Shown: in pieces, positions 1,252 through 35,350 of the stretch
Layout of the letters: the number at the start of each line of letters is the position of its first letter
How positions within the stretch are numbered: the first letter of the stretch is position 1
DNA from: a virus
Strand: one strand, 5' to 3'
IMG/VR virus record: IMGVR_UViG_3300005613_000154
Coordinates: 1 to 40,470 of that record
DNA: 40,470 bases
The notes under the pieces: model-generated
What the model was told of the DNA's origin: nothing
The model's database searches: none
Seen by the model: only the letters and a program-made list of their open reading frames with translations
Made by a program: the position numbers and the translations under genes

Positions 1252-4200
1252 TTAATGCATATACTTCTGCCTAAGGAATGTCATTTGGGCAATTCTCTCT
1301 GTAACAACCCTATCAGTTTCGACTTCCTCAGTAATAGTTTCACTTGTTGCCAAACCCTTGACAACATCTTTCGTCAAGTCTTCTGCCGCAGCAATACTGT
1401 CAGAAAGCGACAACTCAGTAAACAGTAATGAAGTATCTGAGGTTGAAACTGAGTCTGAAAGACCCCTATAAAACTCAACCGCCTTGGCTAACGATTCGCC
1501 AATGCTTAAACTGTCACTTAGTGGAAGCTCAAAAACCTTTACTGAGCTGTCGGCAATAGACAGAGCGTCTGAGAACAGCTTTGTTGCTGTCTTTACCAAA
1601 GACTCTGCCATACCAACTGCGTCTGAAAGCTCGACAGCAACAGCCTCCACTTCAGCGTCCGCAAAGGCAACAGCATCTGCTAAAGTTTTAACAACTGCCT
1701 TTTGGGTAATTGCTTCAGCAGTACTGACTGAGTCTTCCAGCCCAGGCTTTGTTACTTCCTCAGTTTCGGATTCTGAAATGCTCAAAACATCCGAAAGAGA
1801 GAGTGTTGTTTGGTTCGCCAAAGACTCGGCAACAGCCAAAGTATCAGCTACCAACTTAACAATTTCCCAAGCCAAGGCCTCAGCAAACGACACAGAATCG
1901 CCCAGGGAGCGTTCAAATTGCAAACCAGCTATAATTGTCTCATTAATTCCTAAAGCGTCTCCTAAAAGCAAGGAGAGAGCCGCAGCCTCGGAATCTACAA
2001 GAGAAACCGTGTCCGATAGAACCTTGACAATTTCCTTAGCTGTTATCTCCTCTGCTGGCCCAATCGTGTCAAACAAAGCCTTAACCTGCTTCTCCACCTC
2101 GCTTTCGGCAATTGACACAGCGTCGCTTAGAGGCTTCACAAAATCTTTGGCTATAGACTCGACCGCTGCTTGAGAGTCAGTTGGGGTCCGGTAAAACTCC
2201 CTTAGTGTTACCAGGCTTTCAGATAAGACAAGGGTGTCCGAACAGGTAACAGTCTTTCGAGCCGCCAGCTCCTCAGCAATAACCAAGCTATCAGATAAGG
2301 GAATAGAAATGTCTTTTTGTTTTGTTTCCGTGAGAGAGACAGAATCATCTAAAGACTTCGTTATTAGCTTAACTAGGCTTTCCGAAATCGAAAGGCTGTC
2401 TGTGAGGCTTGGAGTAGTTACCTCTGCCTCACTTTCAACAATAACAAGACTGTCAGAAAGTGAAAGCGTAGATTGATTAGCAAGGCTTTCTAAAATAGCC
2501 AGCGTGTCAGCCAATACTTTAGTCAGGCTTGTGGCAATCTCGGCAAAAGAATCACATAAATCGGTCAGTCCTTTACCAACTCCGCTTATTGAAATTGACT
2601 CTGAAATTGAAAGACTGTCTAGGAGCTCCCGATGGATACCAAAAAGAGTAACAGGACTTTCGGCTATGGATAGAGCATCGGTGAGTCCTTGCGTAATATC
2701 TAACCCATCAAGAATCGCTTCAATAACAATGCTGTCTGTTTTTATTAACTCAGAAGTCCACGCTTTTGATTCGGCGAAGCTAATGGAATCAGAAAGATTA
2801 GGCTGTGGCTCGACTGAAACTGCCTCTATGACACTAAGACTGTCGGACAGCGGAAGCGACAAGTCCGCACTTACCGCATCGCTAAAGGTAACGCTGTCTG
2901 ATAACGAAAGATAGAACTCGGCTGTGAGAGCCAAGCTTTCTGAAATACCGAGAGAGTCGCTTAATCCAAGCGTGGGAGCTTCAACTTCGCTGTCTGCGAT
3001 TGAAACGCTATCGGAGAGTGTCTTAACCGCCCTTTGTGCTAACGCCTCCGAGATTGATAGACTGTCCGAGAGAGCCTTTACCGCTTCTTCAATCTCAGAA
3101 TCCACAATCGCCAAGGTGTCTGCCAAGGCCCTGTAATATTCCTCTGTGCTCACCAAGCTCTCGGTTATGGTTTGACTGTCTGATAAACTAAAACCCGTCT
3201 CGTTGGCAAGCGATTCAGCAATTCCAAGACTGTCGCTCAAGGCCAAGACAACGCCCTTCGCCTTGGACTCAGCAATAGATTGACTGTCAGAAAGTGCTTT
3301 CCCAGCCGCCTCTGTTTCAGATTCCGATATCGACTGGGCATCAGACAAAACTTTGCCCGTCGTCTCAGCTTCGGATTCCGCAATGCTTAGTGAATCGGAT
3401 AGGCTTCTGTAGTATTCCTTCGTAGACGACAAGCTTTCTACTATTGCCTGGTTATCTGAAACACCAAGGCTAGTTTGGTTTGCTAAGCTCTCAGACAAAG
3501 CCAAGGACTCCGATAATACCTTAGTGAAATCAATAGCCAATCCCTCTGAAACTGACAAGCTGTCACTTAGAGGCCTCCCTGACCCCTTGGATTTCGATTC
3601 AGTAATACCCAAAGAATCCGATAATCCAGCTCCAGATTTTTTGGCAAGGCTTTCAGATATGCCTAAGCTATCAGTAGGCGTTTCCTCGTGAGAAGCACCC
3701 GAAACGGTAATTGAAAGATATGGTTCCTTCCCCGATTCATCAGCATCGTAATACCATCCGCCATACCGAATACTATCGGCAGGAGCAATATCGTCTAAAT
3801 CGTGATCGTTCCTGGCGGCAAAGTAACTATTCCCCGTTTTGGAGATATTGGCTATTCCATTTGCATCAAGAGCAAATGTTGCCCAATCCGTCCAATCTTG
3901 ACTTTCAGCCCAGGAGACTCCTCCAATCTGATTATAATCACCAGTGCCCAAAACATCGCCCTGGGTCCCATCAACGATGTGCGTTTCGTCTGTGCCTTCT
4001 CCCCGATGGCCCTGGGCATACATTAAAAGATCGGCATCGGTTATTGTGTCCCCGTCATCAATGCCTGAAGTGTCAAAGATCAAAAATCCTCGGAAAAGAG
4101 AATATAACCCGCCATCATCGTCTTGAGCTGTTGCTTGTATTTGAACGTGGTCTTCTACTCCTCCATCGGTGGCATCGTGGACAGTATCCCAGCCAGCCCC

Positions 4201-5130
4201 TGCGGTAATACCAACCCTCCCGCTTTCTGAACCGGCGGTGTAGTTGGTAGCGTCTGTCCTTATCGGGAAAACCGCTTCCTCTTTCAGCCACTGAACGGGG
4301 ATTTTTTTTCCAAAATAAAGCTGGTCGTGCCGCTTTCTGAAATAAAGATCAATCAGGAGGGAAGGAAGATCTGGGTCAGAGTCAACGCTACGAACATAAG
4401 CATCCCGAACAAATGATTTTTTATCCTCTGTCTCCTCAAAAACGATTGGTTTTTTGGTAGAAACGTCGGCAACCTTATTCCAAGTCTTGCCGTTGATTTT
4501 GTGTTTGATCGGCCCTGTTGGTTTCCACTCAAACCCGATTTCCAAAAATTCGGCATTGGCTGGGATCGGCCCCAAGGCCGCGAGGCTATCAATCACAAGC
4601 TCTTTCCGCATCACTCGGTTAAGAAGGGTGACCTCGAGATGAATCCCCGGACCATAGGCGTCCTTGTAACGAATCCTGTTCCCGTCTCCGACTATTATCC
4701 CTTCAACATCCTTAACCCCATCAATAATAATCGTTTGTTGATTCTGCTTGTTGTTCCAACGCAGTCCCATCGGCATATAACCGATAGCGTGATTGTGGCA
4801 CTTGAAGGTAATTGGCTTGGAGTGTTTTATCTTTTGGGAGATTTCCGCTTGGTACGGAGCCTTCTCCATCTTGAAAGCCCCATTCGTTTTAGGAACAAGG
4901 GTGGTGTCGATTTCTTGCCAATCTGCACTCCTAACTTTTTTCCAATCTTTTTGCCACTTAGGTTTTGGGAGGTAGTGAATAGGACCAGAGTGAACCCTGA
5001 TGGTTGTACCACCATTTCTTAAATCCTTGAAGTGTTTTGTGTTCCAAGAACGCTTGGAGACAATTTCCTGAAACTGGGGGCTTTTTTTAAGATCCCGCCA
5101 ATGAAGTCCAGCAGCGGCCTTTTTATCCAT
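1252..5130 (-). CDS. Giant Ser/Asp-repeat virion protein (putative head fibre or receptor-binding protein)
   Basis: The product is 1292 residues. Residues 1-450 form a non-repetitive domain with Trp-rich beta strands and a stretch (about 295-445) resembling DNRLRE-type surface modules (AVFPIRTDATNYTAG, RGFLIFDTSGI). Residues about 450-1270 are some 42 copies of an 18-20 residue repeat with consensus LSDSLSIxESxA plus a variable linker; longer copies end in EYYR or EFYR. The Leu/Ile spacing with regular Ser/Asp suggests a solenoid or extended stalk (inference). The C-terminus is a short capping segment. The gene sits between the capsid genes and the head-completion gene, which is odd for a tail fibre. 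The same repeat occurs in three other virion genes here. The start is preceded by AAGGAAAAAATTT. Confidence 0.75.
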   Translation of the reverse strand: MDKKAAAGLHWRDLKKSPQFQEIVSKRSWNTKHFKDLRNGGTTIRVHSGPIHYLPKPKWQKDWKKVRSADWQEIDTTLVPKTNGAFKMEKAPYQAEISQKIKHSKPITFKCHNHAIGYMPMGLRWNNKQNQQTIIIDGVKDVEGIIVGDGNRIRYKDAYGPGIHLEVTLLNRVMRKELVIDSLAALGPIPANAEFLEIGFEWKPTGPIKHKINGKTWNKVADVSTKKPIVFEETEDKKSFVRDAYVRSVDSDPDLPSLLIDLYFRKRHDQLYFGKKIPVQWLKEEAVFPIRTDATNYTAGSESGRVGITAGAGWDTVHDATDGGVEDHVQIQATAQDDDGGLYSLFRGFLIFDTSGIDDGDTITDADLLMYAQGHRGEGTDETHIVDGTQGDVLGTGDYNQIGGVSWAESQDWTDWATFALDANGIANISKTGNSYFAARNDHDLDDIAPADSIRYGGWYYDADESGKEPYLSITVSGASHEETPTDSLGISESLAKKSGAGLSDSLGITESKSKGSGRPLSDSLSVSEGLAIDFTKVLSESLALSESLANQTSLGVSDNQAIVESLSSTKEYYRSLSDSLSIAESEAETTGKVLSDAQSISESETEAAGKALSDSQSIAESKAKGVVLALSDSLGIAESLANETGFSLSDSQTITESLVSTEEYYRALADTLAIVDSEIEEAVKALSDSLSISEALAQRAVKTLSDSVSIADSEVEAPTLGLSDSLGISESLALTAEFYLSLSDSVTFSDAVSADLSLPLSDSLSVIEAVSVEPQPNLSDSISFAESKAWTSELIKTDSIVIEAILDGLDITQGLTDALSIAESPVTLFGIHRELLDSLSISESISISGVGKGLTDLCDSFAEIATSLTKVLADTLAILESLANQSTLSLSDSLVIVESEAEVTTPSLTDSLSISESLVKLITKSLDDSVSLTETKQKDISIPLSDSLVIAEELAARKTVTCSDTLVLSESLVTLREFYRTPTDSQAAVESIAKDFVKPLSDAVSIAESEVEKQVKALFDTIGPAEEITAKEIVKVLSDTVSLVDSEAAALSLLLGDALGINETIIAGLQFERSLGDSVSFAEALAWEIVKLVADTLAVAESLANQTTLSLSDVLSISESETEEVTKPGLEDSVSTAEAITQKAVVKTLADAVAFADAEVEAVAVELSDAVGMAESLVKTATKLFSDALSIADSSVKVFELPLSDSLSIGESLAKAVEFYRGLSDSVSTSDTSLLFTELSLSDSIAAAEDLTKDVVKGLATSETITEEVETDRVVTERIAQMTFLRQKYMH

Positions 5131-5192
5131 AAATTTTTTCCTTAAGCTTCTCCCTTAAATTTTTTCCTTTAATTTTTTAGTCTGGCTCTTGG

Positions 5193-5798
5193 TCAAGCTT
5201 CTGACACCAGCCAAATCGACATAAAAGTGTATTGGGGACCTCTTTCGATATCAACAGTATTGCCCCCAGAATTAGACTGAGCCATCAGTTGTATGAAATC
5301 ATCTTCTTCAAAATAGACAAGGGAACCACCGCCCACACCCAAAACATTGTGGCTTCCTCCCTCTGTCGTCGAGGCGTGTCCATCAAATATCAGGGTGTCG
5401 GGGTGATTTTTTCCTTCTGCCACAAGATTCCAAACAATCCCTGATCGGTATCTTTTGTCGATAACGAGATATTGAAAAGCAACATTTATATTAACCTGGT
5501 AATACCCTGTCACGGGTACAAGAAATCCGTGGGTGGTCGTATTAAAGTGACTACCAATATTAAAGTCTGTGTTGTCCAACTCAACTACCGTCCAGGTATT
5601 GTGGACAAGATTCTCTTGGGCAACGGAAAGACCAGCCTTGGCTCCCACAGCTAGATTCGGAGCAATTAAATCTTTTATACTTTGAAGGGTTGTTTTTTTG
5701 GTTACTGGAGACCCTGAAGGATCATCAATAATAGCCAGCAAATCTTCAAGGGCAGGGGTTGCAAGTTCCACCAACTCCGTAATTTTCTTATCAGCCAC
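5193..5798 (-). CDS. Virion fibre protein with C1q/TNF-like C-terminal domain
   Basis: The 201-residue product starts with GTG after AAAGGAGAAAAGTT. Residues 1-45 (KKITELVELATPALEDLL, then TTLQSIKDL) are the short N-terminal module typical of phage fibre proteins. Residues about 70-200 look like a C1q-type jelly roll: HNTWTVVELDNTDF, then GFLVPVTGYYQVNINVAFQ, GVGGGSLVYFEEDDFIQL and a closing YTFMSIWLV. Such trimeric domains act as receptor-binding or capping heads of fibres. The gene follows the structured RNA leader at 5828-6002 and is followed by the giant repeat protein, so the two may form one appendage (inference). Confidence 0.7.
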   Translation of the reverse strand: MADKKITELVELATPALEDLLAIIDDPSGSPVTKKTTLQSIKDLIAPNLAVGAKAGLSVAQENLVHNTWTVVELDNTDFNIGSHFNTTTHGFLVPVTGYYQVNINVAFQYLVIDKRYRSGIVWNLVAEGKNHPDTLIFDGHASTTEGGSHNVLGVGGGSLVYFEEDDFIQLMAQSNSGGNTVDIERGPQYTFMSIWLVSEA

Positions 5799-5827
5799 AA
5801 CTTTTCTCCTTTAACTTCCTGTTAACA

Positions 5828-6002
5828 CCCTGAATGCCGGAGTAGAAGTAAACTCTTACCTAGGATAAACTTCTACAAGGCTGGAAGCAGTAGTTTGGAA
5901 AGCTCTGTTTATTGCCAGCCAACCCGCCTTTCCTCTGCCGAGGTGCGAAGCGGTGCCTTACCGCCCTGCATAGGCGGTTCTTCAGCCATCCAGCATTCAA
6001 GG
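5828..6002 (-). ncRNA. Putative structured RNA or riboswitch-like leader, multi-hairpin with 14-bp closing stem
   Basis: Read on the minus strand, CCTTGAATGCTGGA (6002-5989) pairs fully with TCCGGCATTCAGGG (5841-5828): 12 Watson-Crick pairs and 2 G-U pairs. Four hairpins fit inside: ACCGCC/GGCGGT with a 7-base loop; CCGCT/GGCGG enclosing CCTC/GAGG; GGCTGG/CCAGCC; and GTAGAAGT/ACTTCTAC next to the closing arm. A promoter at 6016-6044 would start transcription about 6 bases before the closing stem. Downstream there is no terminator, only the ribosome binding site of the fibre gene, so this could be a regulatory leader or an independently acting RNA processed from it. It matches no RNA family that I can name. 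Confidence 0.6.
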
Positions 6003-6015
6003 TGCTACACTTTAA

Positions 6016-6044
6016 GCTATACTTTATTCTTTCGCTTTTGTCAA
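6016..6044 (-). promoter_or_regulatory. Sigma70-type promoter for the structured RNA/fibre genes
   Basis: On the minus strand TTGACA (6044-6039), a 17-base spacer and TATAGC (6021-6016). It overlaps the last codons of the upstream glycosyltransferase gene. Predicted start is near 6009, just before the structured RNA. Confidence 0.6.
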
Positions 6045-6689
6045 TCCTTGCTTGACTCCTTCATCAAAGGTTTTCTTCAATGCCTGAACGATTGTCATTA
6101 ATGGAACTTGTTTGACGTGGTCAACCAAAACGTCCCAGTTGGCATAAACCTTAAAACCCTTTGCCTTGGCTCTTTCGCAGAAATAGTAATCGTGGCCAAC
6201 TTCTCGCGTCCCATCTGGTCTGATTTTATCTTTAAATGGAGCTTCCAAAGCTTCTAAGACTTCCCTTTTAATCATCATACAACCAGCCCCAAGCCCGTCA
6301 ACCTCGACAACCCCTTTTCTTTTGTCTCCCGGAATTGTTTTATAGTGTCCGTCTTTTTGTTTCTCCATAGCCAACCATTCAAAATGGTCAATTCTCCACA
6401 TAGGATAAACCCCACCCACAATATCTAAGTCAAGCTCAACCATTGGCAGAGGGTTATCAAACGGAACATTATCAGAATCAACGAACAAAAGATGAGTGTG
6501 TTTTGTCCTTTCAACGAAATATTTACAGACTGCGTTTCTATTGGAATAAGTAGGGTTGATGCTAGAAAAGTAAAGTTCGGCCTGATATTTACTCTCATAA
6601 ATCCAGCGTGAATACTTGGCCTCTAGCCCCGTGACGATCTCGCCCGTATGAGTGATAGCAACCAGAATACTCGGTTTTTGTTTGTCCAT
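6024..6689 (-). CDS. GT-A fold glycosyltransferase inside the virion gene block
   Basis: The 221-residue product has the hallmarks of GT-A (GT2-like) transferases: an N-terminal strand ILVAIT, a DSD metal/nucleotide-sugar motif at residues 71-73 (LLFVDSDNVPF), VDGLGAGCMMIKREV in the acceptor region, and GHDYYFCERAKAKGF. The same landmarks recur in the N-terminal half of the protein encoded at 22202-23584, so the two are probably paralogues. It lies among structural genes, between Ser-rich repeat proteins, rather than in the accessory block. A role in glycosylating a virion protein is plausible from context but not shown; substrate and acceptor are unknown. Confidence 0.75.
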   Translation of the reverse strand: MDKQKPSILVAITHTGEIVTGLEAKYSRWIYESKYQAELYFSSINPTYSNRNAVCKYFVERTKHTHLLFVDSDNVPFDNPLPMVELDLDIVGGVYPMWRIDHFEWLAMEKQKDGHYKTIPGDKRKGVVEVDGLGAGCMMIKREVLEALEAPFKDKIRPDGTREVGHDYYFCERAKAKGFKVYANWDVLVDHVKQVPLMTIVQALKKTFDEGVKQGLTKAKE

Positions 6690-6778
6690 AATAACTCTTT
6701 CCCTCCCTCCCCCACCAACGACTAAAATACAATCGTTTTTAAAGTTATCACATCGGCCTTAGCTTCTTACTTGATGCT

Positions 6779-7237
6779 TTATCCGAAAGTTACTGTCCAA
6801 GTAATCTGCAACGTGTCGGAAGCACCTTTGTTGATGACAGAGAACGTTTGTGCACAAAGCATCGTTCCCGAGTCGGCTGTGTGGCTGTTAAAGATTCCAG
6901 CCTCGGTGATAGCACCCGTTCCATCACCGGCAGCCCAGTCACCAACGTAGACCACTTTGTTGTCATCGGCACCAGCACCTTGAGTGAACGAGGTTAGGGT
7001 GTTTCTGTCCAACTCGCCACCCAACTGGGTATCACCCGCAGTCAGAGTAGTGGTAACGGTACCAATCGACATATCGGACATTGCGGATTCGTCCGGGGAC
7101 GATTCCATCTGGTCGGCAACGTGAGCATCTCCAACGTCAGTAAAGACGTTATCAAATTCACGAAGCTCCTTGATTAAACCATCCTCGCCACGAAGCAAGG
7201 CACGTCCGTGTCCTACGATATTCAATCCTGCTTTCAT
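6779..7237 (-). CDS. Phage structural protein, function unassigned
   Basis: The 152-residue protein has the look of a family common in phage structural blocks: NVFTDVGDAHVADQM, SDMSIGT, a variable middle, then GAITEAGIFNS, MLCAQTFSVINKG and a closing TLQITWTVTF. The second half reads as a beta-sandwich. It starts after AAAGGAGGTGAAAAACA. Position between the repeat protein/HeH genes and the glycosyltransferase supports a virion role. I cannot tell whether it belongs to head or appendage. Confidence 0.6.
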   Translation of the reverse strand: MKAGLNIVGHGRALLRGEDGLIKELREFDNVFTDVGDAHVADQMESSPDESAMSDMSIGTVTTTLTAGDTQLGGELDRNTLTSFTQGAGADDNKVVYVGDWAAGDGTGAITEAGIFNSHTADSGTMLCAQTFSVINKGASDTLQITWTVTFG

Positions 7238-7272
7238 TGTTTTTCACCTCCTTTCTGTCTTGGATTTTAAAC

Positions 7273-7470
7273 TTAGGGGTTCGCTCTAATTTGGGGTTTA
7301 TCTTTGACTTGCTCTACACCAAACCCGGCATCGGCCAAGTCCTTTTGGGTTATTCCCTGTTTTTGAAGTTCTTTAAAGTTATTATCCCTGACAACTGCTT
7401 TCCCGTCAAGAGAGATAATATCCAACTCCGCTTTCTTACCAGAAATGGTTTTGGTTAATTTGATACTCAC
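7273..7470 (-). CDS. Small hypothetical virion-block protein
   Basis: A 65-residue protein starting with GTG that overlaps the TGA of the preceding gene (GAGTGAG), so translation is probably coupled. The sequence starts IKLTKTISGKKAELDIISLDG and has a helical middle (FKELQKQGITQKDLADAG). No family is recognised. Its place between the HeH-domain gene and a structural gene makes a minor morphogenesis or virion role likely. Confidence 0.5.
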   Translation of the reverse strand: MSIKLTKTISGKKAELDIISLDGKAVVRDNNFKELQKQGITQKDLADAGFGVEQVKDKPQIRANP

Positions 7471-31117: not shown

Positions 31118-31146
31118 ATTATAGTCTTTTGTTGTTTCCTTGTCAA
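31118..31146 (-). promoter_or_regulatory. Consensus sigma70 promoter of the initiator gene
   Basis: Minus-strand TTGACA (31146-31141), 17-base spacer, TATAAT (31123-31118). The expected start leaves a leader of only about 8 bases before ATG 31103. Confidence 0.8.
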
Positions 31147-35321: not shown

Positions 35322-35350
35322 ATTATAATCCTTTGTTATTCCTTTGTCAA
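35322..35350 (-). promoter_or_regulatory. Perfect consensus early promoter
   Basis: Minus-strand TTGACA (35350-35345), exactly 17 bases, TATAAT (35327-35322). It reads the early block from 35276 leftwards. Confidence 0.88.

What the first reader, a model, noticed from the sequence alone, without database searches (positions are those of the whole stretch)
5828..6044. Promoter-driven structured RNA with a 14-bp closing stem
A 175-nt stretch without a gene folds on the minus strand into at least four hairpins enclosed by a 14-bp long-range stem containing two G-U pairs, which is the covariation-like pattern of a selected RNA. A TTGACA-N17-TATAGC promoter starts just before it, inside the end of the glycosyltransferase gene. 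It ends at the ribosome binding site of a fibre gene. It could control fibre expression or be a virion/phage RNA of unknown class.
Basis: seen in the sequence. Interest (0 to 1): 0.82.

Follow-up and report, generated by a model that had tools for sequence, protein, structure and literature searches.

The report
Phage fibre leader RNA, manA-like variant
The stretch in front of this phage's fibre gene encodes a real, evolutionarily conserved folded RNA that is a distant variant of manA RNA, a known RNA family from marine phages and bacteria whose function is still unproven.

Summary
The minus strand of 5823-6007 folds into a five-helix RNA: a 19-bp closing stem and four arms (z = -5.55; none of 200 shuffles folds as well). 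It has no good reading frame. It is not of unknown class. Below the reporting threshold, Rfam's manA model (RF01745, a candidate riboswitch from cyanophages and marine DNA) matches it end to end (28.8 bits, E = 1.2e-5; gathering score 55.2). The junction order and the core loop UG-GC-UGAAKAACC...GGUAAGGC are those of manA. A close relative in an otherwise largely unrelated phage contig (L236) keeps the fold through 9 two-sided compensatory changes. A model built from these two RNAs finds Rfam-certified manA RNAs in turn (E to 2e-7). The window RNA differs from RF01745 in its long P1, the lack of the 5' hairpin, and a different P5 loop. I call it a manA-related variant, not a formal member. It lies between a conserved promoter-like site and the fibre gene's ribosome binding site, so it is most likely the 5' leader of the fibre mRNA. 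Syntenic relatives carry an unrelated stable hairpin leader or none, so the element is modular. Ligand sensing is unproven; no switch is visible.

The parts
5823..6007 (-). manA-related structured RNA (whole element)
   Evidence: RNAfold z -5.55; RF01745 full-length match 28.8 bits E 1.2e-5; model R1 match at 5817-6014
5989..6007 (-). P1 closing stem, 5' strand (19 bp)
   Evidence: pairs with 5823-5841; three pairs with compensatory change against L236
5823..5841 (-). P1 closing stem, 3' strand
5955..5988 (-). UG linker plus P2 arm with conserved core loop (GGCUGAAGAACC...GGUAAGGC)
   Evidence: matches the conserved letters of RF01745 and of dozens of viral loci
5924..5953 (-). P3 arm (CCGCUU/AGGCGG with inner CCUC/GAGG hairpin)
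5879..5920 (-). P4 arm (GGCUGG/CCAGCC; loop with CUACUG)
   Evidence: two compensatory pairs against L236
5842..5876 (-). P5 arm (GUAGAAGU/ACUUCUAC), loop UUAUCCUAGGUAAGAGUUU
   Evidence: three compensatory pairs against L236; loop nearly identical in L236
5859..5864 (-). palindrome CCUAGG in the P5 loop (possible kissing site)
   Evidence: kept in L236; UCUAGA in L108
6016..6044 (-). promoter-like TTGACA-N17-TATAGC
   Evidence: 10/12 match; same-position sites in L002, L003, L004; the consensus scan does not list it because the last T is missing
5806..5812 (-). ribosome binding site AAAGGAG of the fibre gene
   Evidence: sequence; CAGGAAGTTAAAGGAG is shared with L002/L004
5193..5798 (-). downstream gene, 201 aa, GTG start, C1q-like (fibre or attachment protein)
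   Evidence: Pfam C1q E 8.9e-5, just under its cut-off; phrog_15750, unknown function
6024..6689 (-). upstream gene, family 2-like glycosyltransferase
   Evidence: Pfam Glyco_tranf_2_3 E 1e-4, under its cut-off; phrog_12406 glycosyltransferase

Best explanation
It is a divergent manA-type RNA that forms the 5' leader of the fibre mRNA and acts in cis. Transcription starts near 6009, so P1's 5' strand would be the very 5' end of the message. The leader folds into a compact P1 plus four-arm structure and hands over to a short unpaired spacer with an exposed ribosome binding site. Its most likely effect is to set the level or lifetime of the fibre transcript through this stable 5' fold; regulation by a ligand is possible but unproven. 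Shown: the fold, its conservation, homology to manA, and position. Inferred: promoter use, action in cis, and the stabilising or expression-setting effect.
For: Fold energy z -5.55. RF01745 hits the window RNA end to end, and L236 (33.1 bits, 4.2e-7) and L108 (29.5 bits, 4.6e-6) fully or nearly so. Nine two-sided and five one-sided consistent changes between the window and L236; sliding the partners by 1-3 columns leaves 0-2. Model R1 from these two RNAs finds L108 (55.6 bits), L095, L223 twice, and Rfam-certified manA RNAs L102, L235, L197, L123 (E 2e-7 to 5e-6). The RNA lies just before an SD and start codon in the window, L236 (holin), L163, L170, L089 and the L123 group. A promoter-like site is kept at the end of the GT gene in relatives. 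The same slot in L002/L004 holds another very stable leader (z -5.48), which favours a role for leader stability.
Against: The Rfam score is below the gathering cut-off. Several family members are not leaders: they sit beside tRNA genes or are followed by terminators (10 of 30 against 2.4 expected at random positions), which suggests a free RNA. The SD is predicted accessible with or without P1, so no on/off switch at the ribosome binding site is visible. No transcript data exist.
Confidence: 0.62

Rival explanations
1. A ligand-sensing riboswitch, as proposed for manA RNA: a metabolite (perhaps a sugar or nucleotide compound) binds the four-arm junction and changes fibre-gene expression.
For: The manA motif was described as a riboswitch candidate in 5' UTRs of sugar, nucleotide and photosynthesis genes (PMC2864571). 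The core loop letters are nearly invariant while the helices vary. A glycosyltransferase gene lies next door.
Against: Genes after family members in phages show no shared pathway: fibre, holin, scaffold, portal, unknown small proteins. No alternative fold covers the SD, and no terminator follows the RNA in the window. No ligand is known in the literature held.
Confidence: 0.25
2. A free-standing phage RNA (made separately or cut from the leader) that acts in trans or in a protein complex, perhaps as a dimer through the P5 palindrome.
For: Relatives lie among tRNA genes (L108 16 nt after tRNA-Asp; L147/L248; L219) or are followed by terminators or U runs. The P5 loop palindrome CCUAGG becomes UCUAGA in L108, still palindromic. 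L223 carries two copies in tandem.
Against: In the window and in L236 no terminator follows, and an SD plus start codon come within about 30 nt. The palindrome rests on three sequences.
Confidence: 0.2
3. A chance fold of GC-rich sequence between two genes, without function.
For: Only one close relative (L236) was found, and closely related phages lack the element.
Against: Compensatory changes, reciprocal significant model matches, z -5.55.
Confidence: 0.01

Closest known systems
manA RNA (Rfam RF01745; Weinberg et al. 2010, PMC2864571)
   Same: Closing stem, UG linker, P2 with the UGAAKAA...UAAG internal loop, P3, 3-nt linker, P4, short linker, P5 abutting P1; found in phages; often in 5' leaders.
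   Different: P1 is 19 bp instead of 5; no hairpin 5' of P1; P5 loop AUCCUAGGUAAGAG instead of GGUAu...AAUCC; the proposed pseudoknot is not evident; 28.8 bits, below the 55.2 cut-off; gene context is structural or lysis, not sugar metabolism.
L236 RNA (IMGVR_UViG_3300005265_000009, minus strand 1432-1631 of the locus)
   Same: Same long P1, same P5 loop, same arms, same position just before an SD and start codon.
   Different: Different phage (only one shared gene, 68% identical, in the part compared); the downstream gene is a holin.
wcaG RNA (RF01761)
   Same: Candidate cis-regulatory RNA of cyanophages, described together with manA.
   Different: No match in Rfam scans of the region.
Structured 5' leaders that protect mRNA (such as the ompA leader; from general knowledge)
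   Same: Stable stem at or near the 5' end of the message, SD left open.
   Different: No sequence relation; stability effect untested here.

Membership tests
manA RNA (RF01745) | Covariance-model score at or above the gathering score (55.2 bits) | tested here: not met
   28.8 bits, E 1.2e-5; nothing at gathering level
manA RNA (RF01745) | Statistically significant full-length homology to the model | tested here: met
   Model positions 1-192, E 1.2e-5; reciprocal model R1 finds certified members at E 2e-7
manA RNA (RF01745) | Core P2 internal loop UG-RC-UGAAUAA ... GGUAAGGY | tested here: met
   UG-GC-UGAAGAACC...GGUAAGGC at 5988-5955; U to G at one site, as in L163 and L126
manA RNA (RF01745) | Closing stem plus four arms in fixed order with short linkers | tested here: met
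   Minimum-energy folds of the window and L236; helices 1-8
manA RNA (RF01745) | P5 loop GGUAu...AAUCC | tested here: not met
   Loop is AUCCUAGGUAAGAG
manA RNA (RF01745) | Hairpin 5' of P1 | tested here: not met
   That stretch forms the outer part of the long P1
manA RNA (RF01745) | Pseudoknot (marked as uncertain by its authors) | tested here: inconclusive
   I read CUGU/ACAG between the P4 and P5 loops from the consensus; only a 5-bp A-U-rich candidate was seen by eye in the window
Riboswitch | Binds a specific ligand and changes expression | not testable with these tools
   Needs binding and reporter assays
Riboswitch | Expression platform (SD masking or terminator) | tested here: not met
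   SD open with or without P1; no terminator-like site in 5100-7300
Any other Rfam family, tRNA or tmRNA | Match at gathering score, or ARAGORN hit | tested here: not met

The most novel reading that the evidence does not exclude
manA-type RNAs are not chiefly sugar-gene riboswitches but a mobile phage RNA module with a wider range than RF01745 covers. They are used as leaders of late structural and lysis genes and as free RNAs in tRNA clusters, and the window-type branch may pair with itself through a palindromic P5 loop.
Probability: 0.2. Interest if true: 0.65.

Novelty: new variant of a known kind. Interest (0 to 1): 0.4.

Why it matters
manA RNA has been an orphan candidate riboswitch since 2010, tied mostly to marine cyanophages and sugar genes. 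A covarying branch in front of a fibre gene and a holin gene, in contigs whose few shared proteins give no sign of a cyanophage, widens the family. It argues against a narrow sugar-gene role and shows that the Rfam cut-off misses members. It gives testable leaders of known boundaries, including a natural swap of leaders between closely related phages.

Tried and rejected
(1) BLAST of the region against phage records: no match for the window. The search made for L236 used 3100-3400, which is not the RNA, so its null result says nothing. (2) Close phage relatives by neighbouring genes: L002, L003, L004 lack the RNA at the same place, and R1 finds nothing in 80 loci holding a relative of the 6779-7237 protein. 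(3) The loop pattern ATCCTAGGTRAGAGYTT also hits L251-L257, where the same loop sits on an A-T stem; R1 finds nothing in L251, so it is not counted as a relative. (4) GTDB pattern hits: L218, L220-L222, L224, L226 and L227 show no manA fold by eye and their genomes give no RF01745 hit; L219, L223 and L225 look real. L219 did not score with either model, L223 scored with R1 only, L225 with RF01745 only. (5) A switch that masks the SD: not seen on folding with P1 forbidden. (6) A second model hit in the WOR-3 phylum (L265, 21.3 bits) lacks the core motif and is dropped. (7) A MAFFT alignment of classic members misplaces P5, so no covariation claim is based on it. (8) The family search over whole records did not list the window, because its first-look filter passed no candidate.

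Full report
OBSERVATION. On the minus strand, 6007-5823 forms one compact fold: a 19-bp closing stem P1 (6007-5989 with 5841-5823, three G-U pairs) around four arms P2-P5. The energy is -80.5 kcal/mol against -57.3 +/- 4.2 for shuffles, z -5.55, 0 of 200 as good. No minus-strand ORF of 60 aa or more runs through it.

IDENTITY. Rfam at gathering level finds nothing in the window, which explains why the element looks like an unknown class. With the threshold opened, one family stands out: manA RNA, RF01745, model positions 1-192 end to end, 28.8 bits, E 1.2e-5 over all 4227 families. The alignment places P1, the UG linker, the P2 pairs GC/GC, the internal loop UGAAGAA...UAAG, P3, a 3-nt linker, P4, a short linker and P5 abutting P1 in the manA order, which is also the minimum-energy fold.

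RELATIVES. I scanned viral contigs with the core TGRCTGAAKAA(CC)...GGTAAGG. Many hits are coding chance matches. Dozens, however, carry a hairpin at the right place, and RF01745 scored on their records finds 30 of 46 (13 above the cut-off) and 16 of 27 (7 above), with scores from 122 down to 13.7 bits. Scores of 20-35 bits are thus common among members with the full core. One hit, L236 (46-kb viral contig; the part held shares one gene with the window phage at 68% identity), carries the closest relative: 33.1 bits, E 4.2e-7, same long P1, same P5 loop.

COVARIATION. Over 61 pairs of the window fold, L236 keeps 53 of 60 comparable pairs canonical, with 9 two-sided and 5 one-sided changes; a random-substitution null gives a mean of 40 and never reached 53 in 100,000 trials. 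With the tool's controls: 9 two-sided changes against 4.6 in shuffles (1/500 as high) and 0-2 when partners are slid. The fold was derived from the window sequence, which favours it against slid versions on paired cells, but the two-sided changes are independent of that. Changes fall in P1 (3), P3 (1), P4 (2) and P5 (3). P2 hardly varies, as expected of a conserved core.

RECIPROCAL TEST. Model R1, built only from the window and L236, searched over 58 loci: L108 55.6 bits (5e-15), L095 48.5, L223 twice (43.6 and 42.5), then RNAs that Rfam certifies as manA: L102 (77.5 bits with RF01745; 31.2 with R1, 2e-7), L235, L197, L123. Loci that hold the pattern only in coding sequence gave nothing below E 5. 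Homology therefore runs both ways. By Rfam's own cut-off the RNA is not a member, and two features differ (P5 loop; hairpin 5' of P1 replaced by a long P1), so I file it as a variant related to manA.

SURROUNDINGS. Upstream is a glycosyltransferase-like gene (6024-6689), downstream a C1q-like fibre gene (GTG at 5798) with AAAGGAG at 5812-5806. TTGACA-N17-TATAGC spans the end of the GT gene. Alone it is a 10/12 site of a kind seen six times by chance on the other strand. But three syntenic relatives keep such a site there: L003 TTGACA-N17-TATAAA, L002/L004 TTGACA-N18-TAGTAT (read). TTGACA also encodes part of the GT protein, so this conservation is not free of a coding reason. These relatives do not have the manA-type RNA. 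L003 has a short plain leader. L002/L004 have two unrelated strong hairpins (z -5.48) followed by the same CAGGAAGTTAAAGGAG as the window. The leader is thus a swappable module between a kept promoter-like site and a kept ribosome binding site.

HOW IT MAY WORK. If transcription starts about seven bases after TATAGC, the message begins with P1's 5' strand. Folding the leader with the start of the gene leaves the SD open, with or without P1, and no terminator follows, so the two usual riboswitch outputs are not visible. A stable 5' structure that fixes transcript lifetime and isolates the SD fits the anatomy and the presence of a different stable leader in relatives. A ligand role stays possible, because the P2 core is nearly invariant while helices drift. 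Against one pathway: the next genes in members I could name are fibre, holin (phrog_9987), head scaffold (phrog_194), portal (phrog_2662) and unknown small proteins. Against a pure leader role for the whole family: L108 lies 16 nt after a tRNA, others lie in tRNA clusters, and 10 of 30 members have a terminator-like site within 150 nt against 2.4 expected at random positions of the same loci; random positions include coding sequence, so the expectation is probably too low.

LITERATURE. manA was described in 2010 as a probable riboswitch, in marine DNA, T4-like cyanophages and two gammaproteobacteria, before mannose, nucleotide, ibpA and photosynthesis genes (PMC2864571). Rfam 14 revised its structure (PMC7779021). 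A cyanophage paper repeats the proposal and says the role needs verification (PMC9964418). I found no report of a ligand in the library searched.

LIMITS. Only one close relative of the window type and one more distant (L108) were found. No expression data exist. The host is unknown; the terminase is only 25-28% identical to the nearest known phages, mostly of Firmicutes, Vibrio and Thermus.

Noticed in passing
L223 (Pacearchaeota MAG contig JAFCGI010000014.1), minus strand 4586-4394 and 4385-4175: Two manA-type RNAs in tandem on the same strand, followed by a terminator-like hairpin and then a phage portal gene; the contig is viral and its host assignment is uncertain.
   Followed up: partly
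L145, L176, L231, L185, L192, L243: A further branch with the same P2 core and closing stem that RF01745 does not detect in the four records tested (L145, L176, L185, L192) nor in L243; P1 is followed by a run of T, and in L145/L176/L231 a 357-aa protein that looks to me like a glycosyltransferase follows (a 70-aa piece gave no PHROG hit).
   Followed up: partly
L002 and L004, about 3670-3740 plus strand: The fibre-gene leader of close relatives holds two strong hairpins unrelated to manA (z -5.48), in the slot where the window has the manA-type RNA.
   Followed up: partly
L003:2067-2259 and L016:4430-4622: Group I intron (Rfam, 65.7 bits) right after the relative of the 6779-7237 gene in a close relative of the window phage.
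   Followed up: no
L251-L257: The loop ATCCTAGGTAAGAG on an 8-bp A-T stem beside a fibre-like gene, but on the strand opposite to that gene and without the manA core; chance or a separate element.
   Followed up: partly
window 35322-35350 and 31118-31146, minus strand: Two perfect TTGACA-N17-TATAAT sites; such sites are commoner on the coding (minus) strand (16 against 6), which suggests a host with ordinary sigma-70 promoters.
   Followed up: no
window 6779-7237: 152-aa gene (phrog_5417, weak tail-fibre hit) with 524 relatives in viral contigs by one scan, far more widespread than its neighbours.
   Followed up: no
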